In this document: piece by piece, positions 24,228-56,322 of the stretch
Numbering within the stretch: the first letter of the stretch is position 1
Layout of the letters: the number at the start of each line of letters is the position of its first letter
Source of the DNA: Candidatus Pyrohabitans jungbluthii
GTDB lineage: Archaea; Hydrothermarchaeota; Hydrothermarchaeia; Hydrothermarchaeales; BMS3B
Direction of reading: 5' to 3'
Assembly: GCA_002010065.2 (NCBI GenBank)
Contig: MTMD02000002.1
Location: 496,001 to 560,000, forward strand
DNA: 64,000 nucleotides
Translations under genes and position numbers: made by a program
The notes under the pieces: model-generated
Databases searched by the model: none
What the model was told of the DNA's origin: nothing
Seen by the model: the letters and a program-made list of their open reading frames with translations, nothing else

Positions 24228-24232
24228 TCACA

Positions 24233-24898: not shown

Positions 24899-24910
24899 TT
24901 TACCACCCAA

Positions 24911-29970: not shown

Positions 29971-30099
29971 AAACTCACCTACTTTATTTTTCTTTAACTA
30001 TTTAAAAAGTCTTACCATAAAGGTTGTTCGGCTTGGGGGTGAACAAAATCATAAATTTTTTCAAATCTTTATATTCAGATATGACAGCAGGGAGGTGAC

Positions 30100-30225: not shown

Positions 30226-30265
30226 AGTATGAAATAGGCCCGTAACCCCCAGCTGAGCTAGGGGA

Positions 30266-34833: not shown

Positions 34834-34837
34834 AACC

Positions 34838-39218: not shown

Positions 39219-39691
39219 ACTCAACCTCCTCCTTTTTCAATTTTTGTCATGACTAAAACCCAAGATTTTCCCTGAATCCCCATCTTTACCAACTCCAATT
39301 GTTAGTTAAAGTTTCTTTATATTAAAGCTCGTTTAAAGCTCGTAAGGTGTATAAAAAGTTTACTACAGTTTGACAAAAATTTACATGGTAGAGAGGCGGT
39401 GCTACCTTAAAATAATTAGTAAATTTCTGGATCTTATAACGAGTCTTGAATATTCGTAAATTTTACTCGTCCAAGAAATCTATGGCTATGCCCTTAGAAA
39501 ATACCACTTAGCACCCAGTTAAATAATGGGGGGCTACACCGAGAGAAAAACATTTAAAGGAGTTGGTACACACATACCACCACCCGGAGGTCGAGAAAAA
39601 TTTTAAGGCCGTGATAGAAAAGTTTATAAAAAAAAAGTTTAATAATATTTAATCATATTAGCAAAGTGTGTATAGGATAGGTGTGGGCCAC
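39219..39691. other. AT-rich intergenic region upstream of the cytochrome cluster
   Basis: About 470 bases without a convincing gene. It contains AAAGCTCGTTTAAAGCTCGT (a short direct repeat near 39327-39346), a GC-richer patch ACCACCACCCGGAGGTCG, and near the downstream gene GTTTATAAAAAAAAAG and TTTAATAATATTTAATC, plausible TATA elements for the gene at 39692. Confidence 0.5.
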
Positions 39692-40693
39692 ATGTCGTTG
39701 TCATGGAATAAAGGCATTGTACTGATAGTGTTGCTTCTAAGCATCTCAGTGGTTTATGCAGCTGACCAGTTCTATTCGATTAAAGGTGGCCCCACTTACA
39801 ACGGCTCAAGCGATGGCTGGGTTATGGTTTGGGATGCAGGAGCAACTCAGGACAGCTACCTTAGAGTTGCCTTCTCTGTTAACCGCCCAGCCTACAAGCT
39901 TGGAAAGACTGTTTCGGTAATGATACGTACCGACGGCTATTACTCCAGAGACTCTGGCTGGTGGTATACAGAGGGTGGCGCAAGTGTTGATTATGTAAAG
40001 TTTTACTATCCGAACGGCACACTTATAAAGCAGCTCAGCGGTACCACTGGCAGCGACGGCGTGTGGAAGGACGACACCGCCTTAATGCTCACAAAAGACA
40101 TGCCCATGGGCACCTACAAGGTGGAGGCGAGCGTAACTAAAGGCACGACAACTGTGGGGGATGATGCTGGAGGCTACATGACCATCTACTTCGACGTCGG
40201 AGGAGAGCTTCACCTCACGGTTAATACAAATGCAAGCACAGATAGCAGAGGAAGGTTTGTAGCAGCAAACGGCTCGGTGGTTAGAATTTATGGGCAAATC
40301 CTTCAGCCCAATGGCGACGTGTTCAGCAGCACCACAGTACCTTCGGGAAGTGCTGTTACTGTAAGGCTTGGAATAGTTAAGCCCGACGAGAGCTATACAT
40401 ACATGACCCAAACAACAACCACTGGCGACTATTCCTTTGATGTTCTCCTTGACCAAGTGGGACATTACTTCTTTGTTGTTACCGCCAACTGCACAGTAGG
40501 CGGTCCGATTACTGGCATCAAGTACGTTGTATGTGAGGGAAGAAATCAGACAAATATTATTTCAACGGGAGAGTGGCCAGCGGCGGGGGGCTCCTTCGCA
40601 TCCTCTCCTCTCGCAATTAGCGTGGCGGTGATTCTTGCAATAATATCAGCTTACTACCCAGGGGGTATGCTGTATAGGCGGCTCAGGAAGTAA
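39692..40693 (+). CDS. Membrane-anchored Ig-like surface protein
   Basis: About 333 residues. I choose ATG 39692, which leads into a signal peptide (MSLSWNKGIVLIVLLLSISVVYA); GTG 39668 is the alternative. The mature part is two beta-sandwich regions: SYLRVAFSVNRPAYKLGKTVSVMI resembles MG2/Ig-like domains of surface proteins, and LTVNTNASTDSRGRFVAANGS begins the second. A single C-terminal helix (AISVAVILAIISAYYPGG) with an Arg/Lys tail anchors it. It lies 22 bases before the giant cytochrome on the same strand, so it may be its membrane partner or anchor. Confidence 0.7.
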   Translation: MSLSWNKGIVLIVLLLSISVVYAADQFYSIKGGPTYNGSSDGWVMVWDAGATQDSYLRVAFSVNRPAYKLGKTVSVMIRTDGYYSRDSGWWYTEGGASVDYVKFYYPNGTLIKQLSGTTGSDGVWKDDTALMLTKDMPMGTYKVEASVTKGTTTVGDDAGGYMTIYFDVGGELHLTVNTNASTDSRGRFVAANGSVVRIYGQILQPNGDVFSSTTVPSGSAVTVRLGIVKPDESYTYMTQTTTTGDYSFDVLLDQVGHYFFVVTANCTVGGPITGIKYVVCEGRNQTNIISTGEWPAAGGSFASSPLAISVAVILAIISAYYPGGMLYRRLRK

Positions 40694-40715: not shown

Positions 40716-43700
40716 ATGAGAAGAGGGCTGGTGTTAGTCTTTACTTTAGCTGTGCTTTTCTCAGTTTCGCCTGTGCATGCCAAGGTTACAAACTGGAACG
40801 TCAACATAGAGTTCAGAGATACCGCCAACAATATAATAACAAGCATACAGCCCGGGCAGACCTTCTATGTGAACATAAGCGTCACCGCCTCCAGCGACAC
40901 CGGCGAAACCTATCCCATGGCGAAGCTGAGCATCCCCCCGGGCTTTACCATAATACCCAAAAAGATAAACGACGGCACCTACGACATTGAAGAACACAGC
41001 GTTCATTTTTACAGTCTTGAAGCAGATGGAGACTGGTATGTTACCGGCTCCAGCCTGGCAGATGGCACAAACTGGAACACAGGCTGGGTTGTTAAGGCTG
41101 ACGACTACTTAATTCCCGGGAAAAACTACACCTTCTTTATTGCGATGTATGACGAGGACACCACAGGCGGTACCAAAACGAGTTACTATGAAAACTTCCC
41201 TGCCTACTACCAAGGCTGGGGTAATAAGTTTTACAAGGATATTTACGTCCAGCCCACTATTTCCACCCTAACGGTAAGTGTGAACTCGACCACCTACGAC
41301 ATAGGTGGAGGCGTAACCGTAGAGGGCTTCAAGATAGGCGACACCGTGCTCATAAGCGGCACCACTGAACCTAACGCTAATGTAAACATTACTATTTGGA
41401 AGCCCCAGTACACCATTGGCGCAAAAATCACAACCACAGCGGATGGTAGTGGGAACTTCCAGGCAACCTACACCCTGACGGAAAACTGGGACAGGCGCGG
41501 TATATATACCGTTGAAGTGATAGCCTACAAGGCTCCCAACCTCATAGCAAGAACCAAAATAAACTTCTACGTTGGCGACAACATAGCTCAGAACGATAAA
41601 GCTTTCAGAAGCAAAAGGGTTTCCCCTCCTGACATAAGCTACTCCTGCGGCGATTGTCATACCGCCGTATTCTTCAACTACAGCGTTATGAGCCAGGCAG
41701 ACCAGATTAATCCTGGCAGTGAAGGGACACCTGATCCACATAAGGAGCATCCTTACCGCTCACCCCCAACAGAGAATTGCGACTGGATTCATTGGATTCA
41801 CGACCCTCTGCCGGAATTTAATGAAAGCAGACTGGCTTCCGGTGTGTTGTTAAAGCAGGATCGCGTTACTGCTGGAAGAAGCTACACACAGCCTGGAGAG
41901 ATTACCCACCTTGCCGAGTGGGAGAGGGATGATGACATACCTCCACCCTATGCGATTACCGAGTTTTATGCAGAGCCATTAAATTATCCTGACTCCGCTG
42001 GTGAGTGGACTGCTTGCAGTATGTGCCACCTGAATGTTCGTGGCTACTCTTACGTGAGGACTGACAACACTCTCACTTGCACACCAAAGGGCAACAACCG
42101 TCCGGGATGTCACGTTGTTGAGAGGGAGGGAACCCATAAATACACACCTTCCTGCCAGAACTGCCACGTTCCTTCGGGAAAGAGCTTGAAGGATGTTGAG
42201 CTTCCCAACTGCCTCAAGTGCCATGCTATTAAAAACTATTGGGAATATGGCGTAGGCACTTCCCACGCCACTGACAGTAGTGGCAGTGATATTACAGATG
42301 CTGTAATGGCAGATGATGAGAATGTTTTTAGATTGGATACTTCGGGGCAGTATGTTGAGGCAAATATCTCCGCTCCCTTCAGAGAGAAAGCCCTTCAGGT
42401 TATAAAAATCGGAGTGAACTGGAACGGCACAACCAGCGGAGGTGCGGGCAATCAGCAGATAGAGCTTCAGTACCTCGACGTAAATGGTATATGGCAGTCC
42501 GCAGGGTTATCTCCTGCTCGGACTACGCCTTTTGAAGCGACAGATTACTTCATTATTAAGAACACCTCAGACCCGAGCTTAACAAATCCCGCCGGGCTGA
42601 ATGAGCACGGTGAGATTGTGGTAAGGGTTGTATATCCAACCGATGGCAATTCTAAAGAATTTGCTGATATTGATTATATCTTCATGGACATTCTAGCGGA
42701 TGATTCAATTGCCCTCGAAGGTGCCCACGAGGGTGTGGAGTGCCTCAACTGCCACGGGCACAGCCACAACGCAACCAGGCAAATCTACTGTACCTCCTGC
42801 AAGGGTCAGAAGCTTGCCCCCGAGGGTGAGCACGTGTGGCAGAAGAAGAACGCCACCGGCGGGGATATAATAGAGGGGGTGAACACCTCCCTGTGGTGTA
42901 CAGAGTGCCACGGTGGATATGGGCACACCTCAATAACAAATACGCCTTCCTGCGCCAAGTGCCACAATCCGAGCGTTGCCAACAAGTCTTGGAAGCGGTA
43001 TTCTTATACCGAAATTCCGCCGTGGGGTCTGGACAACATCCATGGCAGAGCTAACCTCTTCTGCGAGGATTGTCACATTGATAATCACAACGTCACATTG
43101 CCCAGCTGCAACGCAGAGGGCTGCCATATCGCCAATATTTCTGATACTGTACCCAGCTCGGGCTACTACGCCACCTGGGACGACTCCACAAAGACTCACG
43201 ACCCGAGCCACAGCAGCGGTACAAACTATACCATAGAGATGCACGCATACAATGCCAGTGGTTGGTATGGCAAGAGTGACAAGAAATGGGGTGCCACCTG
43301 CGATGAGTGTCACAACAACCATACAAGTGAGGTTTACCTCAAGCTTGAGAACAAGTGGATAAATGCGAGCACCGATTCTATGGTACACTCCACCAACAGA
43401 AGTATAGCCGAGATGGTGCCCTACAATGAGAGTTATGCTTCCTACGATGCAAAGTGGTGTGTTGACTGCCATCAGGATAGAGGAAGCCACTATGGGTGGA
43501 GTTGTCTTGACTGCCACTATCGTGATGACGGCGACGACACGTTTAAGGAGCCTGCCTTCCACAGCGCTAAAATCGCAAAGTCTGGTGGGGGCGGCCCCAA
43601 CTGTATAGGTTGCCACGACATTGGAGGCAGCGCCACCCACATTATAAACGTCACCGCCTTAAATCTGAGCGTTCATGGCGGAATAGTTACCAATTCAAGT

Positions 43701-46700
43701 ACTTATTCCACGTATGGCTTGAATCAGAGCTGCTACGCGTGCCACACCAGTGATGGTCAGGCACCTGATGACATGGGCGACCGTTACAACAACCCGTGGA
43801 CATGTGTTGACTGCCATACCAGCGGAGGTGCAAAGGCTGGTGCCTATGGTGCGCCCATAGTTAGTGAGCACTATCGCAGTGGAGATAATATAACTGCTGT
43901 TGGTTATGCCAGCACCGACGTACTCAGCTGCCTTGCATGCCACCAGAATGCCACTGATGCCAGCCTGAGGGACTTCATGCTCATCCCTGCCAACGATCCA
44001 AATGAGGGTAGCTCCGTCTCAGATGTTGATGGAGATGGGATTAAGGGTGGCAACATAAGCTTCTACCACTATGGTAAGGATAACAGCTGGTTGAGAACAG
44101 GGCCTGGTGGCAGCACTTCCTGTCAGTTCTGCCATCAGAACAACAGCATCTTCACTGCAGTAATGAGCGATTCCACTCACAACAGCATGCAGAACCACAC
44201 TGACAATGCTGTTGTAGACTGTACTGACTGTCATGGTACTGGCTGGATACACAATGCATCGCTCACCAAGCCTGTGCTTACTGCGAGTGATGACAGCGTA
44301 TGTACAAGCTGTCATACAACCAAGAGCCGGCACAACAGCGCTGGCAACCGCGCCAATGCTGAGGAGGTAAAGTGTATTGCCTGCCACACTGGTGATGTAA
44401 ACACCTACCAGCCTAGAGACATCCACGGCATAAAGATTATTAACTCCTCGGGTGGTTATGAACAGTGGGGCACCTCTTCTCCAGCGACCTGTGTCACCTG
44501 CCACCAGAGCAACCTTGGTGGCAAATTTGCGAACGCTTCGCAGGTACCTTCACCGCTCAATCACAGCCAGGATCCCATTGCTGGGCAGAAGTGGAACAAG
44601 ACTTCGCAGGCTTACTGGACTCCTGGCGATGATCAGGAGGCGTGCAACTACTGCCATGGCGATTCCAGGCACGAGGCTAATGCACTGGGCAATGCCTCAG
44701 CTATAGAGGATTCGCTGAGCAGGAACGCCACTGACCTCAGCACCACCAGCTGGTGTGCTGGTTGCCACTACTCGGAGGCGAGCAACTACAACGGCACTGC
44801 CTTCTCGCCTCAGCCGCCCGAGATAATCACCTGGGGTGGCACAGCCAATGATGGCACAAGCTTCCAGAACCACAGCGGCTACCTCTCCAGTGGATACGAC
44901 GATAGTGTGTGCACCTCCTGCCACAGTGGTAGCACCTCTTCGACTGCGCTGTATCCGCACAACGTTTACGAGGGCGTCGCAGGCGGTCCCAACTGCATAA
45001 GCTGCCACGACATAGGTCAGAGTGGTGCTCCCAAGCACATCAACTTCACCGCTGTAAATTCAAGCGAGAATATTCACTTTAATCTGAACAATGCCACTCC
45101 TGTGAGTTATGATCCTGTTAACAGGATTTGCCTTGGCTGTCACAGCAGCGATGGAAGCGAGCCTGCGAGTGGACATCCCACAGGCTACAAGTCGCCTTAT
45201 ACCTGCGTAGACTGCCACGTTAACTCGCCACCTGCCCATGCAAGCAATGCTCCGCAGGTAAGGGAGCACTACCGCAATGGCAGCGAGGTGAAGGCGGTTA
45301 CGGACGCAGCCAGCGACGTGCTCAGCTGCATTGCGTGCCACCAGAACTCTACCACAGCAAATACAATGCTAATACCAGCCAACGATCCTGACTATGGCAG
45401 CTTTGATGCCGATGGAGACGGAGTTAGTGGCGGCAACATAAGCGCCTCTCACTATGGCAAGAAGCGCACTGATATTGTCAGTGGAGGCGTAACAAGCTGC
45501 GCCTACTGCCACCAGAACGCTGGAAGCGAGTTCGCTGGTGTGTTCAACAAGAGCGGTAATGCAGACATGCTTAACCATACTGACAACACCGTGGTAGACT
45601 GCACAGACAGTAACTGCCACTCCTCTGGCAGAATTCACGACTCTGCCTTAACCAAGCCGCCTACGATGTACAACAACACCTACTGTACCACATGCCACAC
45701 TGGCAAGGAGCTTCACGGCAGTAATACCATAACAGGAATAAGTCCACAGGGCAGCGGAGTCAACTGCTATGATTGCCATGCCGATGAAAACAAAGAGGTT
45801 GCTCCCATTCACGGCATAAGCTACATAAACACCACAGGCGGCTTCACAGTTTGGGATAACTCCAGTGCAGCCACCTGCAAGACCTGCCACCAGAGCAGCG
45901 TTGCTGATGCTGCTATAGGAGCAACTGCGCCCAAGATACGCTCACCGCTTCACCACAGCGATGATCCCATAGCCGGATGGAAGTGGAACGCCTCTGGGTA
46001 CTGGAATGACACCAACAGTGTTGAGTACGATGACTCCTGCTACTTCTGCCATGGCAGCGTGAAGCACAGCGCCAACGCCATGGGCTTAATAGTTACCAAC
46101 AACGTGACTGGGAGCAACTCCTACAACACCTCCAGCTTCGACACAAGCTACTGGTGCGCCAACTGCCACTACAGCAACAGCGCTGACAACTATGCAGGCG
46201 ACCTCTTCACGCCTAAAGTGGTTGAGATAACCTCCTGGCCAGTGAACTCAAGCGATGGGCAGCAGGAGTTTGTGAACCATACCAGTTACATCTCATCAGG
46301 TCATACTGATAGCGTTTGTAAGGGCTGCCACGGTGGCTTTGCACCTGAAACCACGGGCGACTTTGCCCACGACGTGGCTATAGGTGCAGCCGGCGGCCCC
46401 AACTGCATAAGCTGCCACGATATTGGCGCCAACCCAAGTGTAACCCACGTGATTAATGTCTCGGCCCTGCAGCAGGGTGTGCACGGCAATATTGATACCC
46501 CAGCGGATGACGCTACATATGGCTTGAATCAGAGCTGCTACGCGTGTCACACCAGTAATGGTCAGGCACCTCCAGAAGGAGATATGGGCGACCGGGCCTT
46601 TAACCCGTGGACATGTGTTGACTGCCATACCAGCGGAGGTGCAAAGGCTGGTGCCTATGGTGCGCCCATAGTTAGTGAGCACTATCGCAGTGGAGATAAT

Positions 46701-49700
46701 ATAACTGCTGTTGGTTATGCCAGCACCGACGTACTCAGCTGCCTTGCATGCCACCAGAATGCCACTGATGCCAGCCTGAGGGACTTCATGCTCATCCCTG
46801 CCAACGATCCAAATGAGGGTAGCTCCGTCTCAGATGTTGATGGAGATGGGATTAAGGGTGGCAACATAAGCTTCTACCACTATGGTAAGGATAACAGCTG
46901 GTTGAGAACAGGGCCTGGTGGCAGCACTTCCTGTCAGTTCTGCCATCAGAACAACAGCATCTTCACTGCAGTAATGAGCGATTCCACTCACAACAGCATG
47001 CAGAACCACACTGACAATGCTGTTGTAGACTGTACTGACTGTCATGGTACTGGCTGGATACACAATGCATCGCTCACCAAGCCTGTGCTTACTGCGAGTG
47101 ATGACAGCGTATGTACAAGCTGTCATACAACCAAGAGCCGGCACAACAGCGCTGGCAACCGCGCCAATGCTGAGGAGGTAAAGTGTATTGCCTGCCACAC
47201 TGGTGATGTAAACACCTACCAGCCTAGAGACATCCACGGCATAAAGATTATTAACTCCTCGGGTGGTTATGAACAGTGGGGCACCTCTTCTCCAGCGACC
47301 TGTGTCACCTGCCACCAGAGCAACCTTGGTGGCAAATTTGCGAACGCTTCGCAGGTACCTTCACCGCTCAATCACAGCCAGGATCCCATTGCTGGGCAGA
47401 AGTGGAACAAGACTTCGCAGGCTTACTGGACTCCTGGCGATGATCAGGAGGCGTGCAACTACTGCCATGGCGATTCCAGGCACGAGGCTAATGCACTGGG
47501 CAATGCCTCAGCTATAGAGGATTCGCTGAGCAGGAACGCCACTGACCTCAGCACCACCAGCTGGTGTGCTGGTTGCCACTACTCGGAGGCGAGCAACTAC
47601 AACGGCACTGCCTTCTCGCCTCAGCCGCCCGAGATAATCACCTGGGGTGGCACAGCCAATGATGGTACCACCTTCAAGAATCACAGTGAATTTGGCATTT
47701 CGCCGTCATCATATACTGACGATAAGTGCACCTCTTGCCACAGTGGTAGCACTTCTTCGACTGCGCTGTATCCGCACAACGTTTACGAGGGCGTCGCAGG
47801 CGGTCCCGAATGTACCACCTGTCACTATATAGGCAGCGCCAATCCCAACATCAACGTCACCGCCTTCTCTCTGGGTGTGCACGGCAAGATAGTTACCAAC
47901 TCCAGCACCTTCTCCACCTATGGCTACAACCAGAGCTGCTGGGCGTGCCATGCCACAGATGGTAGTGTAACTCCCAGTGGTCATCCTGATAGGCAGAAGA
48001 ACCCGTGGACCTGCGTTGACTGCCACACCTCTGGTGGAGCCAAGGCGGGTGCTTATGGCGCTCCAATAGTGAGCGAGCACTACCGCAATGGCAGCGAGGT
48101 GAAGGCGGTTACGGACGCAGCCAGTGACGTGCTCAGCTGCATTGCGTGCCACCAGAACTCTACCACAGCAAATACCATGATAATCCCGGCAAACGACCCG
48201 GATGAGGGCAGCGCTGACATGATTGATGTTGACGGCGACGGCACCAAGGGTGGTAACCTAAGCTTCTACCACTATGGTAAGAATCGTACTGATTTAATCA
48301 CAGGAGGAATAACCAGCTGTGAATACTGCCACGTGGGCGGTGGCAATGAGTTTGCCTCGCTCTTCAACAATACTCTAAATACCAACATAACCAACCACAC
48401 CGATAACAACAACCCCTACTGCACAGGCTGCCACGGCAGCGGAAGGATTCACGACGCAGCCATCTTCAAGACCAGCGTTACCAACAGCACCTTCTGCGTA
48501 AGCTGCCACGGCAGCGATGCTGTGCCAAAGCAAGCTCACGCAACAGACACCAGCGAGAACACTCTCGGTAGCGGTGTGCCCTGCGCCGACTGTCACACCT
48601 CAGTGCCCAGAGATATCCATGCAGCGAGGTACATCCTTGCAAATGGCAGCTACTCTGCGCCCTACGATAACTCTACCTATGCGGTTGCCAACTGCGTAGA
48701 TTGCCACCAGCCTGGTGGGGTGCCCTCAGCCAACTCCAAGTTCTCCAGTGCACCCATAATTTCCAAGCCCATGAACCACAGCGATAGCAACCTCTCTGGT
48801 CAGAAGTGGGGCAACTACTGGGCTCATGGCGATGATCAGAGCACGTGCAACTTCTGTCACGGTGACACCAGACACAACTCCTCTGGCCTGGGCAAGGCGA
48901 GAGTGGTTATGGGAAGCAACTCCCTCAACCAGAGCCTTGACGCTGGCATATGGTGTGCAAATTGCCACTACAAGGTTTCGTCCGAGTACAACGAAACTAA
49001 GCTCCTTAACACCTTTGGTGTGCTTCCGCCCGAAATTACCAACTACTCCACGGGTGAGATAAACTTCAGCGATGGTTCAACTTCGCAGAACCATTCTGAG
49101 CTCAACCTGGATAGCAACTATAAGGATTCTCAGTGCGACGGCTGCCACGGCTATAACAACCCGATCAAGACCTCTGGTAGCTTTGTGCACCAGGTTGCGG
49201 TTGGTAACGTGGGTGCCGAGCCCGGCGGTCCTGACTGCGTGAGCTGCCACAAGCCAGGTGGCTATGCAGAAACCTATAACCACTCCATAGATACTGATGT
49301 TATGGAGAGCAGCAGCTACATCCACCGCTACCTCAACAAGGACGCCACCGCAAGCACTTCGCTGAGCACAACCCTCAACAAAGCCTGCTGGGCATGTCAC
49401 GATCCCAAGGGTCAGGGCGTGGAGCCGGGTGCTAAGGAGCACTACAACACCACCACAACGGCGAAGCGCTGCACCGACTGCCACCTGAGCGGTGCCTTTG
49501 GCGCTCCCGTGGTGAGCGAGCACTTCTGGAATGCTCAGGAGATAAAGCTAAATAAGACAACTGCATGTGAGGACTGCCATGCAAGAGCTGAGATGGTGCT
49601 CAACCACACCGACCCCTCACCAAGTATAGCCGAGAATGCCACAATGAACGCTTCCCACTACGGCACGAAGCGCAACGATGTCAAGGCAAAGACAGGCAAC

Positions 49701-50600
49701 GGCTACTGTGGCTACTGTCACCAGCAGCAGCATAGCGACTCAACCGCAGCGTTTAACGACCTCTTCAACGATCCGGCGAAGCAGCGCATACCCAGGCACA
49801 GCAACGGCACGAGGCACAACTACGATACCTGCGTGAGGTGTCACAACGCTTACAACAGGAATCTACATGATATAACAGTTATAAAGAACAATATAAACAC
49901 CATAAATTGCTATCTGTGCCATTCTGTAACAGAGGGATGGGCTTATGTCCATGGCTTTGAAAAGAGTAAAACGTTAGACTGCCAGGATTGCCACGTGGGC
50001 GACACAGGTACAATCCATCCGATATCCTACATACGCAGCGACGGTACCTATAAGAACTACTCTGTAACCACGCCGAAGAAGGCTGATTGCGTGGACTGCC
50101 ACCTTGGTTCAAATTCCGCCATAGATACTGCGATGCAGACCTACTATGGTAAGGTTCCGCCAAGATTTGCAACCTTCAAGCACAACCTCTCCACCACCTA
50201 CTGGAGCACAACAAAGCAGGCATGTCTGTACTGCCACAACCCCGTGCACTGGGAGGCGGTTGGTGTTTCCCGCATTGCTGCAGCCAAGGCTGGAACGAAG
50301 TATCGGCAGATAAGGGATGACCACAAGCCTCTCAACAACACCCTCTGGAACACCACATGGTGTGCCTCTTGCCACTACAGCGGCGATAGTGATTACGACG
50401 ACGTACAATACGTCTTAACCAAATCCAGCCTCTACGGGCGCTCACCTCTGCCACCTGTCATAAGCACACCTTCAAGCCACTATGGCGCAGATATTACTGT
50501 AAACTACACCGACGCTAAGTGTGGCGAAAGTACCTGCCATGGTGGAAGCTACACCCCGAGCGACGGGCTTACCCCATTCATGCACAACATAACCAACTGA
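40716..50600 (+). CDS. Giant modular multiheme c-type cytochrome (about 72 heme sites)
   Basis: 3294 residues, secreted: signal peptide MRRGLVLVFTLAVLFSVSPVHA. Residues 25-290 are two Ig-like beta domains. From about 310 on I count 69 CXXCH motifs plus three CX4CH (CNAEGCH, CTDSNCH, CGESTCH), one CXXCK (CTSCKGQ) and one widely spaced C-x9-CH. A jelly-roll-like insert lies near 530-690. From residue 959 five modules begin with GGPNC/GGPEC/GGPDC at about 959, 1423, 1893, 2362 and 2837, each with 12 heme sites. Modules 1-4 each have a DxDGDG calcium-type loop (DVDGDGIKGGN, DADGDGVSGGN). There is no C-terminal anchor. Probable role: extracellular electron conduit. Confidence 0.95.
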   Translation: MRRGLVLVFTLAVLFSVSPVHAKVTNWNVNIEFRDTANNIITSIQPGQTFYVNISVTASSDTGETYPMAKLSIPPGFTIIPKKINDGTYDIEEHSVHFYSLEADGDWYVTGSSLADGTNWNTGWVVKADDYLIPGKNYTFFIAMYDEDTTGGTKTSYYENFPAYYQGWGNKFYKDIYVQPTISTLTVSVNSTTYDIGGGVTVEGFKIGDTVLISGTTEPNANVNITIWKPQYTIGAKITTTADGSGNFQATYTLTENWDRRGIYTVEVIAYKAPNLIARTKINFYVGDNIAQNDKAFRSKRVSPPDISYSCGDCHTAVFFNYSVMSQADQINPGSEGTPDPHKEHPYRSPPTENCDWIHWIHDPLPEFNESRLASGVLLKQDRVTAGRSYTQPGEITHLAEWERDDDIPPPYAITEFYAEPLNYPDSAGEWTACSMCHLNVRGYSYVRTDNTLTCTPKGNNRPGCHVVEREGTHKYTPSCQNCHVPSGKSLKDVELPNCLKCHAIKNYWEYGVGTSHATDSSGSDITDAVMADDENVFRLDTSGQYVEANISAPFREKALQVIKIGVNWNGTTSGGAGNQQIELQYLDVNGIWQSAGLSPARTTPFEATDYFIIKNTSDPSLTNPAGLNEHGEIVVRVVYPTDGNSKEFADIDYIFMDILADDSIALEGAHEGVECLNCHGHSHNATRQIYCTSCKGQKLAPEGEHVWQKKNATGGDIIEGVNTSLWCTECHGGYGHTSITNTPSCAKCHNPSVANKSWKRYSYTEIPPWGLDNIHGRANLFCEDCHIDNHNVTLPSCNAEGCHIANISDTVPSSGYYATWDDSTKTHDPSHSSGTNYTIEMHAYNASGWYGKSDKKWGATCDECHNNHTSEVYLKLENKWINASTDSMVHSTNRSIAEMVPYNESYASYDAKWCVDCHQDRGSHYGWSCLDCHYRDDGDDTFKEPAFHSAKIAKSGGGGPNCIGCHDIGGSATHIINVTALNLSVHGGIVTNSSTYSTYGLNQSCYACHTSDGQAPDDMGDRYNNPWTCVDCHTSGGAKAGAYGAPIVSEHYRSGDNITAVGYASTDVLSCLACHQNATDASLRDFMLIPANDPNEGSSVSDVDGDGIKGGNISFYHYGKDNSWLRTGPGGSTSCQFCHQNNSIFTAVMSDSTHNSMQNHTDNAVVDCTDCHGTGWIHNASLTKPVLTASDDSVCTSCHTTKSRHNSAGNRANAEEVKCIACHTGDVNTYQPRDIHGIKIINSSGGYEQWGTSSPATCVTCHQSNLGGKFANASQVPSPLNHSQDPIAGQKWNKTSQAYWTPGDDQEACNYCHGDSRHEANALGNASAIEDSLSRNATDLSTTSWCAGCHYSEASNYNGTAFSPQPPEIITWGGTANDGTSFQNHSGYLSSGYDDSVCTSCHSGSTSSTALYPHNVYEGVAGGPNCISCHDIGQSGAPKHINFTAVNSSENIHFNLNNATPVSYDPVNRICLGCHSSDGSEPASGHPTGYKSPYTCVDCHVNSPPAHASNAPQVREHYRNGSEVKAVTDAASDVLSCIACHQNSTTANTMLIPANDPDYGSFDADGDGVSGGNISASHYGKKRTDIVSGGVTSCAYCHQNAGSEFAGVFNKSGNADMLNHTDNTVVDCTDSNCHSSGRIHDSALTKPPTMYNNTYCTTCHTGKELHGSNTITGISPQGSGVNCYDCHADENKEVAPIHGISYINTTGGFTVWDNSSAATCKTCHQSSVADAAIGATAPKIRSPLHHSDDPIAGWKWNASGYWNDTNSVEYDDSCYFCHGSVKHSANAMGLIVTNNVTGSNSYNTSSFDTSYWCANCHYSNSADNYAGDLFTPKVVEITSWPVNSSDGQQEFVNHTSYISSGHTDSVCKGCHGGFAPETTGDFAHDVAIGAAGGPNCISCHDIGANPSVTHVINVSALQQGVHGNIDTPADDATYGLNQSCYACHTSNGQAPPEGDMGDRAFNPWTCVDCHTSGGAKAGAYGAPIVSEHYRSGDNITAVGYASTDVLSCLACHQNATDASLRDFMLIPANDPNEGSSVSDVDGDGIKGGNISFYHYGKDNSWLRTGPGGSTSCQFCHQNNSIFTAVMSDSTHNSMQNHTDNAVVDCTDCHGTGWIHNASLTKPVLTASDDSVCTSCHTTKSRHNSAGNRANAEEVKCIACHTGDVNTYQPRDIHGIKIINSSGGYEQWGTSSPATCVTCHQSNLGGKFANASQVPSPLNHSQDPIAGQKWNKTSQAYWTPGDDQEACNYCHGDSRHEANALGNASAIEDSLSRNATDLSTTSWCAGCHYSEASNYNGTAFSPQPPEIITWGGTANDGTTFKNHSEFGISPSSYTDDKCTSCHSGSTSSTALYPHNVYEGVAGGPECTTCHYIGSANPNINVTAFSLGVHGKIVTNSSTFSTYGYNQSCWACHATDGSVTPSGHPDRQKNPWTCVDCHTSGGAKAGAYGAPIVSEHYRNGSEVKAVTDAASDVLSCIACHQNSTTANTMIIPANDPDEGSADMIDVDGDGTKGGNLSFYHYGKNRTDLITGGITSCEYCHVGGGNEFASLFNNTLNTNITNHTDNNNPYCTGCHGSGRIHDAAIFKTSVTNSTFCVSCHGSDAVPKQAHATDTSENTLGSGVPCADCHTSVPRDIHAARYILANGSYSAPYDNSTYAVANCVDCHQPGGVPSANSKFSSAPIISKPMNHSDSNLSGQKWGNYWAHGDDQSTCNFCHGDTRHNSSGLGKARVVMGSNSLNQSLDAGIWCANCHYKVSSEYNETKLLNTFGVLPPEITNYSTGEINFSDGSTSQNHSELNLDSNYKDSQCDGCHGYNNPIKTSGSFVHQVAVGNVGAEPGGPDCVSCHKPGGYAETYNHSIDTDVMESSSYIHRYLNKDATASTSLSTTLNKACWACHDPKGQGVEPGAKEHYNTTTTAKRCTDCHLSGAFGAPVVSEHFWNAQEIKLNKTTACEDCHARAEMVLNHTDPSPSIAENATMNASHYGTKRNDVKAKTGNGYCGYCHQQQHSDSTAAFNDLFNDPAKQRIPRHSNGTRHNYDTCVRCHNAYNRNLHDITVIKNNINTINCYLCHSVTEGWAYVHGFEKSKTLDCQDCHVGDTGTIHPISYIRSDGTYKNYSVTTPKKADCVDCHLGSNSAIDTAMQTYYGKVPPRFATFKHNLSTTYWSTTKQACLYCHNPVHWEAVGVSRIAAAKAGTKYRQIRDDHKPLNNTLWNTTWCASCHYSGDSDYDDVQYVLTKSSLYGRSPLPPVISTPSSHYGADITVNYTDAKCGESTCHGGSYTPSDGLTPFMHNITN
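43791..44854 (+). repeat. Long internal repeat of the giant cytochrome gene, copy 1
   Basis: 1064 bases within module 1. Read side by side, they are identical to 46602-47665 (offset 2811 bases). The encoded 354 residues, including ten heme sites, are the same. The flanks diverge at once on the left and become mosaic on the right. Confidence 0.9.
46602..47665 (+). repeat. Long internal repeat of the giant cytochrome gene, copy 2
   Basis: Second copy, within module 3. A further shared tract at the same 2811-base offset lies in modules 2 and 4 (about 45271-45365 and 48082-48176, one difference seen), showing that modules 1+2 were duplicated together as 3+4. Confidence 0.9.
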
Positions 50601-50669
50601 TGAGCAAAAAAGTTAAATATAAAAAAATCTAAAAAATGTTAAAAAACATTAAATATATAGGGTGAAGTG
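50601..50669 (+). promoter_or_regulatory. Promoter region of first tetraheme gene
   Basis: AT-rich gap with AAATGTTAAAAAACATTAAATATATAGG; the TTAAATATA block is a TATA-like element about 15-20 bases before the GGGTGA ribosome site. The inverted repeat AATGTT/AACATT sits just upstream. The tetraheme gene therefore probably has its own promoter after the giant cytochrome gene. Confidence 0.45.
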
Positions 50670-51215
50670 ATGAGCGGCCTGCGTATGATGGTGCTGACGC
50701 TGGGATTGATGGCTTTGCTAACCTTAGTCATGCCCACAGCGATGGCTAAGTTCAGCGGCCAGCACCAGTTCGTGAATGGAAGTGAGGTGGATTGCGCAAA
50801 GTGCCATATTGATGTTTATGATGAGCTTACCGCTAACCCCGATGCGCCTCATGCAAACCGGAGCTGTAAGTTCTGCCATACGTGGGGTAATGAGAGTGCC
50901 CCCGGATTCTGGAAGGACCCATTGGGTTTGGATCTTAAATTTCATGCGGCTGCTACTATAGCTTGCGACAATGAATACTGCCATGGCAAGGCAGGAGCTA
51001 ACGTCACCGCTGAAATAACCAACACCTCCGCGGCGCATACGCCCTTCTACGAGAGCATGCACAACGAGCCATACCTCCAGGGCGGCAATGAAGCCTGCGT
51101 TGGCTGCCACACTCAGGTGAAGGTGAACGTCACCATATCTGAAGCCAAGGGCTTCAACATCACTGCAACGAGCAACGGTACCGACTGGAACATAACCTTC
51201 AGCATAGTACCTTAA
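50670..51215 (+). CDS. Secreted tetraheme cytochrome A, candidate filament subunit
   Basis: 181 residues from ATG 50670 (GGGTGA upstream). Signal peptide ends LVMPTAMA-KF. Four heme sites: CAKCH (42-46), CKFCH (66-70), CDNEYCH (99-105, CX4CH) and CVGCH (143-147). The mature start KFSGQHQFVNG has a His well placed to be a distal heme ligand. The C-terminal 40 residues are beta-rich and Asn/Thr-rich, probably glycosylated. It is a paralogue of the next gene. Small secreted four-heme archaeal cytochromes build the extracellular cytochrome filaments known from Archaeoglobus veneficus; membership in that family is my inference. Confidence 0.85.
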   Translation: MSGLRMMVLTLGLMALLTLVMPTAMAKFSGQHQFVNGSEVDCAKCHIDVYDELTANPDAPHANRSCKFCHTWGNESAPGFWKDPLGLDLKFHAAATIACDNEYCHGKAGANVTAEITNTSAAHTPFYESMHNEPYLQGGNEACVGCHTQVKVNVTISEAKGFNITATSNGTDWNITFSIVP

Positions 51216-51284: not shown

Positions 51285-51827
51285 ATGAGGAGAGTACTAC
51301 TCTTGGTGGGTGTGCTGGCACTGATGATGCTGGTGATGCCCACAGCGATGGCAAAATTCCAGAACCAGCACAGCTTCCTGAACGGCAGCAGCGTAGACTG
51401 TACCAAGTGCCACTCGGACGTCAACACGGAACTTCAGGGAAGTGACGTGAGTGTGCACAAAAATCTTGACTGCAAGGACTGCCACATAGCTCTGGGTCCG
51501 CAGGCAGCGGGCAAGGGATACCACGCTGCCGAGCTGGTGGAGTGTCTCTACTGCCACGATACCAACGCTGGTCAGAATACCACCTGGACTAATCGTCCGA
51601 TACCATCCAACAACGTTACCGCCGAGATAACCCAGACCACGGCAGCGCATAAGCCCTTCTATGAGGCGATGCTCACAGAGACCACGCTCCAGGGTGCCAA
51701 CGAAGCTTGTATAGGCTGCCACACCAATGTGCAGGTGGACGTTGCCATAACCGAACAGACCGGCTACAACATTAGCGCCACCTACGACGGTACCGGCTGG
51801 ACTGTGAGCCTGACAGGCACATTCTAA
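51285..51827 (+). CDS. Secreted tetraheme cytochrome B, candidate filament subunit
   Basis: 180 residues. The signal peptide ends VMPTAMA-KF, as in its neighbour. Four canonical heme sites: CTKCH (39-43), CKDCH (63-67), CLYCH (87-91) and CIGCH (142-146). The third site aligns with the CX4CH of the neighbouring tetraheme. Shared blocks with that paralogue are KFxxQHxFxNGSxVDCxKCH, NVTAEITxTxAAHxPFYE and LQGxNEACxGCHT. It has the strongest ribosome site in the region. A candidate major subunit of a cytochrome filament, judging by size, heme number, export and lack of an anchor. Confidence 0.87.
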   Translation: MRRVLLLVGVLALMMLVMPTAMAKFQNQHSFLNGSSVDCTKCHSDVNTELQGSDVSVHKNLDCKDCHIALGPQAAGKGYHAAELVECLYCHDTNAGQNTTWTNRPIPSNNVTAEITQTTAAHKPFYEAMLTETTLQGANEACIGCHTNVQVDVAITEQTGYNISATYDGTGWTVSLTGTF

Positions 51828-51876: not shown

Positions 51877-51899
51877 GTTAAATTTTTGCGAGGGAATTG

Positions 51900-52631
51900 A
51901 TGAATGCCCTTGATATAGTTGTGCTGTTTTACCTTTTGACAATGAGTTTCACCTTCCTAGTGTTCCTGCTCAGTGATAAGTTGTCCCTCCTATTCAAACG
52001 TCTTGTTACTTATGGAAAGCAGCGCAGCTTCCAGAGAAAGGTGGAGAAAAGGTATAGGGAGATGGTGGGTCTGGATAGAATACGCAAACCCACCTTTTCA
52101 GGTGCGATGCTGATAATAATCTTCTACCTCATCTTTGGCGTTTTTGCCATGAACAAGTACCTCTACTTCGCCGCCGTTGCGTCGTACAGCATGTACCCCA
52201 CCCTTGATAAGGGAGACCTTATACTTGTGCAGAGCTTTCACCTTGAGCCCGAAGTTGGAGACATTATCCTCTTCAGCGGTATAGAGGTTGGCGATGAGGA
52301 GAGGCGCGAATTCGTGAGCCACCGGGTTAAGAAAATAGAGGGTGAGAAAATATATACGGGCGGAGATGCTAGAGGTGGTCTTGACCCGTGGGTGGTGCAC
52401 CGGGAGCAGATAGTGGGCAAGGTGGTAACTCTCTTCGGTCAGCCTGTAAAAATCCCCAAGATTGGCGAGTATCTTATTATGGAAGAGGGCAAATCCATGA
52501 GAAACATCCTCCTGCTCCAGTACTTCCTCAATATGAGCAGAATTTACGGTTTTCTGATATTTATCACCGCAATGCTGCTCTACCTCTACCTCACTGCCCG
52601 TGAAGCGAGAAGGCGGGAGGTTAGTATATGA
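51900..52631 (+). CDS. Signal peptidase I (archaeal/ER type)
   Basis: 243 residues from ATG 51900 (GAGGG upstream). Two N-terminal helices (about 5-24 and 67-85) and one C-terminal helix (about 213-233) anchor it. The catalytic Ser97 is in ASYSMYPTLDKGD and the general-base His141 in FVSHRVKKI, the Ser/His arrangement of ER and archaeal enzymes; TGGDARGGLDPW corresponds to the conserved GDN-type box. It lies between the tetraheme and nonaheme cytochrome genes, so it may serve this locus specifically. The extra N-terminal membrane-cytoplasmic section (1-60) is longer than usual. Confidence 0.9.
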   Translation: MNALDIVVLFYLLTMSFTFLVFLLSDKLSLLFKRLVTYGKQRSFQRKVEKRYREMVGLDRIRKPTFSGAMLIIIFYLIFGVFAMNKYLYFAAVASYSMYPTLDKGDLILVQSFHLEPEVGDIILFSGIEVGDEERREFVSHRVKKIEGEKIYTGGDARGGLDPWVVHREQIVGKVVTLFGQPVKIPKIGEYLIMEEGKSMRNILLLQYFLNMSRIYGFLIFITAMLLYLYLTAREARRREVSI

Positions 52632-53776
52632 AAACAAAGCACAAGGTCTTGCTTCTTGGTATCATCGCCATAGGCTACTACATGTTCACACTCTCCGTAG
52701 CAGAATTTAGAGGTCAGCACTCCTTCATAGCGGGTGTCCAGGTAAACTGCACCTCCTGCCATGAAAACGCTGCCTCCAACCTCTCCGCCTCTGCCTACCA
52801 CTCCAGCAAGAGCTGCACCTTCTGCCACAGCGTAACCTTTGTAAACAACTCAGCCCACGGTGCCACCACCACCATCGCCTGTACAGACTCGCTCTGCCAT
52901 GCCAACGTCACCGCTAACCTAACCTCCCCCTACGAGGCGCACAGAGACCTGTACCTTAAAGCGGAGGACTACTTCACCGGCACCTACACCTATGGTCCCA
53001 ACGAAGCGTGCATCTTCTGCCATACTAAGTATCGCAAAGAGATAACATTTTACCATCCAGAGTACATCAACTTTACCATTACAACCAACCACACATCCAA
53101 CTCCTCCTGCGACAGTGGCACCGTTAAGACCTTCAACATCACCCGCTTTGTGGTTGGACCACAGGCAACCAGACCACCCGAACTGTTTACCGACACCGGG
53201 AATCTCCACTACTTTATAAACGTTACTCAGATAAGCTGTTCCGCCAGCCCGTGCCATAAACCGATTCAAGACGCTTTAACTTATAGTATACAATATAGAG
53301 CTCACATAAGCGATGTGGAGGACGAAGGTACAGACGTGGGTCACGCTACTTCAAGCTACGACGACTCCTACTGCAAGGACTGCCACTACAACACAGCCTA
53401 TGCCTTTTTATACCCAGGCTTTGTGCACGCCGACGAGGTGCATGCTGCAGAGAAAATAAAATGCACCTCCTGCCACAGCGCTAATTTGAGTGCTCCTTTT
53501 CCCGCGTCGAATCAGGACAACAACGGCACCGAGCACGGGTGCTCCACTCTATACTATGACATAGAGAAGATTCCAATACACTACCAGGCAGATGTTTGTA
53601 TTGCCTGCCACTACCGGTATGTTCACCTGGATACAAATACTGACACATCAGCCTGCGATGCTTGCCATGTCAACAGCAACAATACCGCCTTTAACCTAAC
53701 AGTAGTTTACTATTCGGAATATTCATCAGACCCAGGTTATGTCACCATATCCGTGGTCAATCTGTCAGGCCTATAA
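52628..53776 (+). CDS. Secreted nonaheme cytochrome related to the tetrahemes
   Basis: 382 residues; its ATG overlaps the signal peptidase stop. N-terminal signal or anchor (about 7-25). Residues 26-150 align with the tetraheme proteins (AEFRGQHSFIAGVQVNCTSCH) and carry CTSCH, CTFCH, CTDSLCH (CX4CH) and CIFCH. The remainder adds CSASPCH (CX4CH), CKDCH, CTSCH, CIACH and CDACH, for nine sites. It looks like a tetraheme filament unit extended by a five-heme domain, as might suit a base or tip protein. Its C-terminus is beta-rich with no anchor. Confidence 0.85.
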   Translation: MKTKHKVLLLGIIAIGYYMFTLSVAEFRGQHSFIAGVQVNCTSCHENAASNLSASAYHSSKSCTFCHSVTFVNNSAHGATTTIACTDSLCHANVTANLTSPYEAHRDLYLKAEDYFTGTYTYGPNEACIFCHTKYRKEITFYHPEYINFTITTNHTSNSSCDSGTVKTFNITRFVVGPQATRPPELFTDTGNLHYFINVTQISCSASPCHKPIQDALTYSIQYRAHISDVEDEGTDVGHATSSYDDSYCKDCHYNTAYAFLYPGFVHADEVHAAEKIKCTSCHSANLSAPFPASNQDNNGTEHGCSTLYYDIEKIPIHYQADVCIACHYRYVHLDTNTDTSACDACHVNSNNTAFNLTVVYYSEYSSDPGYVTISVVNLSGL

Positions 53777-53853: not shown

Positions 53854-54696
53854 TTGTATGACATGGAAGTAAGGCTTGAGGAGAAGTTTGCCCTCAGTTT
53901 GTTATTTATCGCACCTTTGCTCATGGTTTATTTTCCACTCTATTTCTACTATCACGGCTTCAAACATGGGGACATGGATTTATCACATATAATACTCTCC
54001 GCCCTCCTGTTTTCTCTTGGATTTTATGCTCTTTCAGGCTCGTTCAGGATATATAGTAAAGTTAAAAAACATCTCCACCTTGAGGGAGCCTTTAAAACTC
54101 TAATATTACCTGCAGTGGAGCCCCTTCTCAGGCAGATAGCTCTTCAAACAGTGTCCATGCAGGAACTTGAGAATAAAATCTCGCAAGTCAACCGTTTTCT
54201 GGACAAAATTTCTCCAACTGATAAACCAGCCACATCCAGGGTGCAGTCAGCAGCTTTCCAGAGGAACTCCATAGCTCTCGGCATTTTAACCCTCGCCATT
54301 GCTACCTTCCTGCATCTTACCTCCAGCACCTTCCTCCAGGCTTACATAACCTTTCTACTCTTCTTCGGCTGGTGGCATCTAATAACCTCAGAATTCAACC
54401 TCCACTACTCCATCCGCTCCTACATCACCCTGGCGATTTTCGCCATAGGTGAACTCTTAATACTCTTCTTTCTCCCAACCAAAGGAGTATTCACCAACCT
54501 GTTCTACACCTACCTGAACCTTACCATTATTGTGTATGCCTACTATCGCCTGGCTTTCATAGACTCACCTCGGGTCATTATAGAAAGAAGTTTCATCGCC
54601 TACAGAACTGTTCGACACTTTCTCTCGTTACTTATCCGGGACTTCGTAGGTAGCCACTTTGAATATGGCAAAAAATTTTTAAATAATAAAAAATAA
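53854..54696 (+). CDS. Paralogous membrane protein 1 of the cytochrome locus
   Basis: 280 residues, start TTG with GAGGTGA seven bases upstream. About six to seven membrane helices: two N-terminal (12-32, 42-62), a central amphipathic coiled segment (65-125), then four or more (135-235). The motif GWWHLITSEFNLHYS aligns with LWWLIITDEFGLFAD in the next gene, so the two are tandem paralogues. I recognise no family. A membrane platform or assembly role for the cytochromes is suggested only by position. Confidence 0.7.
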   Translation: MYDMEVRLEEKFALSLLFIAPLLMVYFPLYFYYHGFKHGDMDLSHIILSALLFSLGFYALSGSFRIYSKVKKHLHLEGAFKTLILPAVEPLLRQIALQTVSMQELENKISQVNRFLDKISPTDKPATSRVQSAAFQRNSIALGILTLAIATFLHLTSSTFLQAYITFLLFFGWWHLITSEFNLHYSIRSYITLAIFAIGELLILFFLPTKGVFTNLFYTYLNLTIIVYAYYRLAFIDSPRVIIERSFIAYRTVRHFLSLLIRDFVGSHFEYGKKFLNNKK

Positions 54697-54714
54697 TTTC
54701 ATAAAGGTGTCCTT

Positions 54715-55608
54715 ATGCGGGAGCGCATAGAACTCAACGAGAAGATTTCCCTTGCCATAGCGGGTTTTGTAGCAGTAGGTATGTTTTTACTATCCATATA
54801 TTCCCTCTTCAAGGATATCTTTATCTCCTTCTCTGCACCTGGGATTCTCTTGGACATAGCCTTTATATTCCTTTCTCTATATCTCGGAAGCGGTATACTG
54901 AAAACTTACAACAGAATTACATACTCTGCCGCTATAGACAGGGAATTCAGAGAGGCTCTTCTAAAGAGGCTTGAGCCTGCCCTCAAAGAGGTTGCAAAGA
55001 GTCATGTGTACCTCCAGGAGCTTGACAAAAAGGTGACACTTCTCTCAAAAAGGGTCTCTACTATAAGTGCCGCATACCCCGCCAGGCCTGCCCGAGCAGC
55101 GCCTGGAGAATTTTCCCCCTTCTTCCAGAGGGCGGTATTCATGAGCCTCCTCACCCTTGGGTCACTGATTTTTGTAAACCTTCGCATAAGCCAGACCGGT
55201 GCTTATGTGGTACTTGTTCTTTTCTTCCTGTGGTGGCTCATAATTACTGATGAATTTGGGCTTTTCGCAGATTTTGGTGCCTATATGTTCATAATAGGCC
55301 CTCTGCTTGTCGTTCCCATAGCTTCAATAATCCTCCTTGCCTATCTTGATGTATTTTACATGCTCATGATTCTTTATCTTGCTCTGGTAATATACGTCTT
55401 ACTTTATTACTCTGCGGCCAGCTATCAGGTTACTGGCAGAATACCCCTGCTTGAGAGAAGCAACTACAACATGTACAGAAATGGCGGTGCTAAGGGTGCA
55501 AACGCTCGCGAGAGGGATGGCGGCTCTCTAATTAACGATAACGGTAGAAAACCCTCCTTCACCAGACGTGTTGTGGAACTTTTGCTGGAAAGGTTAAAGC
55601 ATGGTTAG
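54715..55608 (+). CDS. Paralogous membrane protein 2 of the cytochrome locus
   Basis: 297 residues. Same layout as the preceding gene: two N-terminal helices, a helical linker (REALLKRLEPALKEVAKSHVYLQELDKKV, compare VEPLLRQIALQTVSMQELENKI upstream), then a four-helix block with LWWLIITDEFGL. It has a longer basic C-terminal tail (about 255-297). The gap to the first gene is 18 bases, so they are co-transcribed. Family unknown. Confidence 0.7.
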   Translation: MRERIELNEKISLAIAGFVAVGMFLLSIYSLFKDIFISFSAPGILLDIAFIFLSLYLGSGILKTYNRITYSAAIDREFREALLKRLEPALKEVAKSHVYLQELDKKVTLLSKRVSTISAAYPARPARAAPGEFSPFFQRAVFMSLLTLGSLIFVNLRISQTGAYVVLVLFFLWWLIITDEFGLFADFGAYMFIIGPLLVVPIASIILLAYLDVFYMLMILYLALVIYVLLYYSAASYQVTGRIPLLERSNYNMYRNGGAKGANARERDGGSLINDNGRKPSFTRRVVELLLERLKHG

Positions 55609-55656: not shown

Positions 55657-56322
55657 ATGAAGGGCGTAATACTTACGGTGGTGATTATGTTAATGATACT
55701 GGCAGCATCTCTGTATGCTCAGGAGGTAGTGGAGATAAGGGAGGAGCAAGCGAAGCTGCTGAAGAGATACACCGCCTTCTCAACCCACTCCGGCTGGATA
55801 TGCAATAAGTGTCATCTTCAGATAATGGGAGAACAGAGGTTCAGGGAGGTGACAGGTGGGTGTTTGTGCCATCGCAGTCCCTATGGTAAACCCGCCAAAG
55901 TTACAATAGAGAATGTCCAGAAATATGCCCACGACGCAAACCACTGCATGCTGTGCCATGCGGGGACAAAGAATGTGAATACTGATGTCTATCACAAAAT
56001 TGTACACTACAACGTATCCTGCAGCAAATGTCACGATATAAGGAAAAAAAATGATGAGTTCGATATAATAAAGCCGAAAAGTACATATTGCAGAGGATGC
56101 CATTCAGAGGATGTGCATGTGGTGCATGGTCTTAGACTGGACAGGCTCTGCGAATACTGCCATGGAAAAGAATTTGCAAGAAAGTATGTGTCCGTGGGGC
56201 TTGAACCACCTGAGGTGAAGTTAGAGAAGAATCAAACCCTGGTAAAACCAAAGGAGGAAGAGAGAGGTGGTATACCATCCATCAGCGAACTCATATTCAA
56301 GATTTTGGACATTATTTTCTGA
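55657..56322 (+). CDS. Exported 5-6 heme cytochrome c
   Basis: 221 residues with a signal peptide (ending ASLYA-QE). Canonical heme sites are CNKCH (49-53), CMLCH (97-101), CSKCH, CRGCH and CEYCH. Between the first two sits GGCLCHRS, a C-x-C-H with one spacer residue, which may or may not bind heme. The C-terminus, after a charged linker, ends in an amphipathic SISELIFKILDIIF that may dock to the membrane. It is unrelated in sequence to the tetrahemes. It overlaps the next gene by 56 bases, indicating a tight operon. Confidence 0.83.
   Translation: MKGVILTVVIMLMILAASLYAQEVVEIREEQAKLLKRYTAFSTHSGWICNKCHLQIMGEQRFREVTGGCLCHRSPYGKPAKVTIENVQKYAHDANHCMLCHAGTKNVNTDVYHKIVHYNVSCSKCHDIRKKNDEFDIIKPKSTYCRGCHSEDVHVVHGLRLDRLCEYCHGKEFARKYVSVGLEPPEVKLEKNQTLVKPKEEERGGIPSISELIFKILDIIF

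What the first reader, a model, noticed from the sequence alone, without database searches (positions are those of the whole stretch)
40716..50600. A 72-site cytochrome built from five 12-heme modules
I count 69 CXXCH and 3 CX4CH motifs. From residue 959 the chain divides at GGP(N/E/D)C into modules of 464, 470, 469, 475 and about 458 residues. Each has exactly 12 heme sites in the same order when CX4CH is counted. A dodecaheme module repeated five times in one secreted chain suggests a covalent heme wire rather than a polymer.
Basis: seen in the sequence. Interest (0 to 1): 0.9.

Follow-up and report, generated by a model that had tools for sequence, protein, structure and literature searches.

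The report
Giant archaeal cytochrome of repeated 12-heme modules
A deep-sea hydrothermal archaeon encodes one secreted protein with at least 72 heme-attachment sites, 60 of them in five copies of the same 12-heme unit; that unit also builds the largest cytochromes described in methane-oxidising archaea, and here the gene lies next to genes resembling those of a known polymeric protein nanowire.

Summary
Residues 959-3294 are five modules (464/470/469/475/458 aa) whose 60 sites fall in the same 12 alignment columns. The window belongs to the same genus as Ca. Pyrohabitans JdFR-17 (Hydrothermarchaeota). The module is the building unit of a wider family: 44 of 47 full modules from Hydrothermarchaeota and Methanoperedens have exactly 12 sites, including those in the 113-CXXCH Methanoperedens protein reported as the largest known. 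Across 46 modules there are 12 free-ligand columns for 12 hemes. Eleven are nearly always His; one, just before site 3, toggles between His and Met (at least five changes on the tree; Met in modules 1 and 3 here). Modules 1 and 3 share a 1,064-nt identical tract, so the array appears to be still recombining. Immediately downstream are two tetraheme genes homologous to the A. veneficus nanowire subunit (8e5g), and this linkage recurs. Most likely a surface heme conduit lengthened by module duplication, working with rather than instead of a polymer. Heme spacing could not be tested: the two-module AlphaFold model failed. Giant archaeal cytochromes were known; I found no prior description of this module.

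The parts
40716..50600 (+). giant multiheme c-type cytochrome, 3294 aa, 69 CXXCH + 3 CX4CH
   Evidence: Pfam cytochrome c7 / MtrC-like heme domains
40716..40784 (+). signal peptide (about aa 1-23), the only strongly hydrophobic segment of the protein
   Evidence: inspection and hydropathy
40788..41630 (+). N-terminal heme-free region aa 25-305, weak Ig-like similarity (Big_6 E=0.015, below cut-off)
   Evidence: no homologue in the relatives fetched
41631..43589 (+). heme-bearing head aa 306-958: 11 CXXCH + 1 CX4CH, plus candidate CX9CH (aa 455-466) and CXXCK (aa 692)
42258..42731 (+). heme-free insert in the head, aa 515-672, no Pfam match
43590..44981 (+). module M1, 464 aa, 12 sites; Met at the variable distal-ligand position (aa 1020)
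44982..46391 (+). module M2, 470 aa, 12 sites (site 6 is CX4CH); His at the variable position
46392..47798 (+). module M3, 469 aa, 12 sites; Met at the variable position (aa 1957)
47799..49223 (+). module M4, 475 aa, 12 sites; His at the variable position
49224..50597 (+). module M5, terminal-type module, 458 aa, 12 sites (site 12 is CX4CH); groups with the last modules of relatives
43791..44854 (+). 1,064-nt tract in M1 identical to 46602-47665 in M3
46602..47665 (+). 1,064-nt tract in M3 identical to 43791-44854 in M1; offset 2811 nt = two modules
39668..40693 (+). upstream gene: secreted beta-domain protein with signal peptide and C-terminal membrane helix (possible surface anchor)
50667..51215 (+). 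tetraheme protein (3 CXXCH + 1 CX4CH), homologue of the A. veneficus cytochrome nanowire subunit (PDB 8e5g, E=7.5e-12)
51285..51827 (+). tetraheme protein, homologue of PDB 8e5g (E=5.6e-14)
51897..52631 (+). signal peptidase S26 family protein
52628..53776 (+). multiheme cytochrome (7 CXXCH + 2 CX4CH) whose N-terminal part resembles the nanowire subunit (33% identity)
53854..55608 (+). two multi-pass membrane proteins without Pfam match
55657..56322 (+). pentaheme secreted cytochrome
56761..58470 (+). secreted beta-sandwich (Wzt_C/MG2-like) protein with C-terminal membrane helices

Best explanation
The protein is a secreted, cell-surface multiheme cytochrome built by tandem duplication of a self-contained 12-heme module. 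Heme is attached outside the membrane by the cell's Ccm system. Each module carries 12 c-heme sites and 12 conserved second axial ligands, so it should fold as a fully ligated 12-heme unit; five such units in a row plus a 12-site head give a covalent chain that passes electrons by heme-to-heme hopping from membrane cytochromes outwards. It is encoded with two subunits of an Archaeoglobus-type polymeric cytochrome filament, and most likely acts as the fixed-length part of the pathway (across the envelope, or as the filament's base or feeder) while the filament does the long-range part. Module number changes by intragenic recombination between near-identical modules, and one heme per module is tuned by swapping its second ligand between His and Met. 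Shown: modules, site register, ligand columns, His/Met pattern, gene neighbourhood, relatives, identical tract. Inferred: heme occupancy, wire-like geometry, envelope position, the role relative to the filament, the redox effect of the Met.
For: Motifs and register. 46 full modules: 12 motif-His columns and 12 free-ligand columns, eleven of them 93-100% His. 44 of 47 full modules have exactly 12 sites across Hydrothermarchaeota and Methanoperedens. Own genome has Ccm cytochrome-assembly proteins. Signal peptide and no anchor. Short junction spacing. Downstream tetraheme genes match PDB 8e5g at 5.6e-14 and 7.5e-12; 8E5G is the A. veneficus cytochrome filament (PMC12954529). The tetraheme genes directly follow the giant in two congeners (77-nt gap) and in a same-class genome, and homologues lie in the held DNA of 13 of 39 module-bearing contigs, mostly on the same strand. 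Module phylogeny separates terminal from inner modules (100/100) and places M1-M4 with congeners' inner modules. Identical 1,064-nt tract. His/Met column: 31 His, 13 Met, spacing of 10 residues to site 3 in 45 of 46, at least 5 changes forced on the tree.
Against: No heme distances could be measured; the two-module model failed and the single-module model has no fold match in the PDB. No S-layer domain or membrane anchor in the protein, and no Pfam S-layer protein in the genome, so how it is held at the surface is unknown. M5 lacks His at three of the usual distal columns in this alignment. Two of the four sampled congeners have no match to the module yet have the tetraheme genes, and JdFR-18 has a giant without a tetraheme gene beside it, so neither strictly needs the other. 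Expression is unknown.
Confidence: 0.6

Rival explanations
1. Electron capacitor: the hemes mainly store charge at the surface when acceptors are scarce, and length was selected for capacity, not for reach.
For: Heme number varies widely between relatives (26 to 113 or more); modules look self-contained; no anchor or S-layer domain.
Against: Conserved neighbourhood with filament subunits and short junctions fit conduction better; but storage and conduction are not exclusive.
Confidence: 0.2
2. S-layer conduit of the ANME MHC-A/B kind: the chain threads through the surface layer and does the work of the outer-membrane porin-cytochrome complexes of bacteria.
For: Same module family as Methanoperedens giants; the 113-CXXCH one has a Pfam S-layer domain near its C-terminus; PMC9012536 proposes this for ANME giants.
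Against: This protein has no S-layer domain and no C-terminal membrane helix, and the genome has no PF07752 match.
Confidence: 0.3
3. Free-standing covalent nanowire that replaces a polymer.
For: 72 sites in one secreted chain; from OmcS geometry (about 4.8 nm per 6 hemes, PMC6584659) a fully extended 72-heme chain would be some 55-60 nm long.
Against: Polymer-subunit homologues are encoded next door; a single chain of this length is much shorter than polymeric filaments.
Confidence: 0.15
4. Copy number is partly an assembly artefact: the two 1,064-nt identical tracts are one sequence placed twice.
For: Perfect identity over 1,064 nt between diverged flanks in a single assembly; no independent assembly was available.
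Against: The flanks of the two tracts differ in both M1 and M3, and M2, M4 and M5 are distinct, so five different module starts and ends exist; the Met codons lie outside the tract; the JdFR-18 assembly shows a similar 1,332-nt exact intragenic repeat in a second cytochrome.
Confidence: 0.1

Closest known systems
113-heme MHC of Ca. Methanoperedens Mn-2 and other Methanoperedens giants (PMC7327174)
   Same: Built from the same homologous 12-heme module in tandem (L046, 113 CXXCH + 7 CX4CH, six full modules plus split and partial ones)
   Different: Larger, with Ig/MG2-like regions and an S-layer domain; the present protein has a different head, a distinct terminal module and no S-layer domain
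Ca. Hydrothermarchaeum profundi JdFR-18 cytochrome (67 CXXCH; up to 67 motifs in JdFR genomes noted in PMC6759336)
   Same: Same order, homologous modules
   Different: One module is split between sites 8 and 9 by about 935 heme-free residues; no tetraheme nanowire gene beside it
ANME MHC types A, B and C (PMC9012536)
   Same: Very large extracellular archaeal MHCs with 20-80 heme sites
   [quoted passage not shown] none found here
Archaeoglobus veneficus cytochrome filament subunit (PDB 8e5g)
   Same: Homologues are the next two genes; also secreted, heme-dense
   Different: Tetraheme subunit that polymerises non-covalently; the module profile of the giant does not retrieve it
Geobacter dodecaheme cytochrome GSU1996 (Pokkuluri 2011, cited in PMC6584659)
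   Same: Covalent tandem of heme modules forming an extended chain (own knowledge)
   Different: Its repeat is a triheme c7 domain, 12 hemes in the whole protein (own knowledge); not retrieved by the module profile

Membership tests
c-type multiheme cytochrome | many CXXCH sites on a secreted protein | tested here: met
c-type multiheme cytochrome | Ccm maturation system in the organism | tested here: met
   three Cytochrom_C_asm matches over cut-off
c-type multiheme cytochrome | covalently bound heme at each site | not testable with these tools
   needs protein
dodecaheme-module family (Hydrothermarchaeota / Methanoperedens giants) | 12 sites in register with the family profile | tested here: met
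dodecaheme-module family (Hydrothermarchaeota / Methanoperedens giants) | 12 distal-ligand columns | tested here: met
   M5 deviates at three columns
ANME MHC-A/B | S-layer domain | tested here: not met
ANME MHC-A/B | C-terminal transmembrane helix | tested here: not met
ANME MHC-C | N-terminal pectin-lyase-type domain | tested here: not met
   only weak Ig-like matches
archaeal polymeric cytochrome nanowire subunit (8e5g type) | homology of the giant's modules to the tetraheme subunit | tested here: not met
   profile searches searches do not return 8e5g; the two downstream genes do
archaeal polymeric cytochrome nanowire subunit (8e5g type) | polymerisation of the downstream tetraheme proteins | not testable with these tools
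   homology only
GSU1996-type c7 tandem | triheme c7 repeat unit | tested here: not met
   repeat unit is 12 sites / about 467 aa; GSU1996 not retrieved

The most novel reading that the evidence does not exclude
A length- and potential-programmable heme wire: one dodecaheme module is the common building block of giant archaeal cytochromes in two distant lineages, module number is changed by intragenic recombination in steps of whole modules (here two modules, 24 hemes), one specified heme per module toggles between His/His and His/Met ligation to set the potential profile along the chain, and the chain plugs into a co-encoded polymeric cytochrome filament.
Probability: 0.25. Interest if true: 0.85.

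Novelty: new variant of a known kind. Interest (0 to 1): 0.62.

Why it matters
Giant archaeal cytochromes have been counted by heme motifs, but their construction has not been described in the literature searched here. A repeating 12-heme unit that accounts for most of even the largest known one gives a protein small enough (about 460 aa) to express, solve and measure, and predicts lengths, a ligand switch and a partner filament that can each be tested. It bears directly on how archaea without an outer membrane move electrons through and beyond the cell surface.

Tried and rejected
A first genome-contig scan with M1 alone found nothing; the profile A2 succeeded. Viral contigs: none. Foldseek of the single-module model (pLDDT 74, pTM 0.67) against the PDB: no meaningful match. 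Alignments A3 and A5 of module pairs were out of register by a module and were not used. Pfam on the head, its insert and neighbours gave only weak Ig-like hits. Homology of the head to relatives: none found. The 2023 paper that described the archaeal cytochrome filaments is not in the held library, so its own account of gene neighbourhoods could not be checked.

Full report
Observation. The ORF at 40716-50600 encodes 3294 aa with 69 CXXCH and 3 CX4CH sites. GGP(N/E/D)C occurs at residues 959, 1423, 1893, 2362 and 2837 and cuts the rest into modules of 464, 470, 469, 475 and 458 residues, each with exactly 12 sites. When the five are aligned, all 60 sites fall in the same 12 columns. A shuffled protein of this composition has 0.36 CXXCH on average.

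Beyond the count. The remaining 12 sites lie in a head (residues 306-958) behind a signal peptide and a heme-free region with only weak Ig-like similarity. The five cysteines outside these motifs include a CX9CH and a CXXCK, so two further heme sites are possible. There is no second membrane helix by hydropathy and no S-layer domain, and no Pfam S-layer protein in the genome.

Organism and relatives. The congener contig found in the whole-genome search (G001, 56,053 bases) is MTME02000085.1, Ca. Pyrohabitans sp. JdFR-17, so the window comes from the same genus, in the Hydrothermarchaeota. The same family of modules occurs in a second congener, in Ca. Hydrothermarchaeum profundi JdFR-18 (3924 aa, 67 CXXCH + 6 CX4CH) and in a further same-class genome. 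Two of four sampled congeners have no match. A profile scan of named genomes then found the module in many Ca. Methanoperedens and, more weakly, in ANME-2 and Argoarchaeum-type genomes. One of these, L046, is a 5599-aa protein with 113 CXXCH; Leu et al. (PMC7327174) report a 113-heme MHC from Methanoperedens Mn-2 as the largest in any microorganism, and the two match in motif count and genus (the isolate is labelled MnB_21, so the identity is an inference). Kato et al. (PMC6759336) had noted up to 67 motifs in JdFR genomes. Giant MHCs are therefore known; in the literature I could search I found no description of the dodecaheme module as their unit.

The module. Of 47 full modules, 44 have exactly 12 sites and three have 11. 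In an alignment of 46 there are 12 motif-His columns and exactly 12 columns of free His present in at least half of the modules. Eleven of these are His in 93-100%. The twelfth, ten residues before the first Cys of site 3 (45 of 46 modules), is His in 31 and Met in 13; in the two exceptions a His sits one residue away. On a tree built without that stretch the His/Met state changes at least seven times, five of them forced by well-supported branches. I read this as a recurrent swap of one axial ligand. Met ligation generally raises a c-heme's potential (established knowledge), but that is not measured here, and which heme the ligand serves is not known. In this protein M1 and M3 have Met and M2, M4 and M5 have His. 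Both Met codons lie just outside the identical tract described next.

How the array grew. In the module tree M5 joins the last modules of relatives (100/100), and M1-M4 join the inner modules of congeners rather than those of Methanoperedens, so the amplification happened within this lineage. Congeners have two full modules against five here, although their more fragmented assemblies could collapse near-identical copies. M1 and M3 share 1,064 identical nucleotides between flanks of about 70% identity, offset by exactly two modules (2811 nt); M2 and M4 share exact tracts of 50-54 nt at nearly the same offset. This indicates recent gene conversion, or a two-module duplication with continued exchange. 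It also means that unequal recombination would add or remove 24 heme sites. An assembly duplication cannot be excluded without reads. A second JdFR-18 cytochrome has a 1,332-nt exact intragenic repeat.

Neighbourhood. The next two genes encode tetraheme proteins matching PDB 8e5g (E = 7.5e-12 and 5.6e-14), the Archaeoglobus veneficus cytochrome filament (PMC12954529). They directly follow the giant gene in both congeners (77-nt gap) and a tetraheme gene follows it in a same-class genome; homologues lie near module-bearing genes on 13 of 39 contigs, mostly on the same strand. I did not compute a formal chance level for that fraction; many contigs are short. A signal peptidase gene, two more multiheme genes and membrane proteins follow. 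Chadwick et al. (PMC9012536) describe signal peptidase genes near ANME MHC genes too.

Mechanism. The best reading is a surface electron conduit made of self-contained 12-heme units, feeding or anchoring a tetraheme filament. Junction spacing between sites (28-34 residues) is no longer than inside modules, which argues against a gap, but heme distances are untested: the single-module AlphaFold model is moderate (pLDDT 74, pTM 0.67), has no PDB fold match and came without coordinates, and the two-module model failed.

Verdict. Observation confirmed; interpretation partly supported. The protein is not the record holder for heme number and its class is known, so the interest lies in the shared module, the ligand switch, the recombining array and the nanowire linkage.

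Noticed in passing
window aa 1020 (43773-43775) and aa 1957 (46584-46586); 46-module alignment: One distal-ligand position toggles His/Met across the module family, 10 residues before site 3; a candidate redox-tuning switch.
   Followed up: yes
L044 (JdFR-18), protein residues 1348-2282: A 12-heme module is interrupted between sites 8 and 9 by about 935 heme-free residues with no Pfam match; the two parts still add to 12.
   Followed up: partly
L027, JdFR-18 gene at G012:C9:936624-942731: A second giant cytochrome (33 CXXCH + 3 CX4CH) contains a 1,332-nt exact repeat at 1,491-nt spacing.
   Followed up: no
window aa 455-466 and 692-696 of the giant: CX9CH and CXXCK in the head: possible extra non-canonical heme sites, the latter of the lysine-ligated type seen in NrfA.
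   Followed up: no
window 22593-24910 (-): Heme-copper oxidase superfamily subunit I (COX1 Pfam match) with a single-heme membrane cytochrome; by inspection it looks like a NorB/NorC nitric oxide reductase pair.
   Followed up: partly
window 28525-31204 (-): Protoporphyrinogen-oxidase-like flavoprotein and ferrochelatase genes: heme synthesis genes about 10 kb from the giant cytochrome.
   Followed up: partly
window 58964-63898 (-): 1644-aa surface protein with NosD/beta-helix and several bacterial Ig-like domains and a C-terminal membrane helix.
   Followed up: no
window 34766-38806: Two facing membrane proteins with spermidine-synthase-like domains (883 and 462 aa).
   Followed up: no
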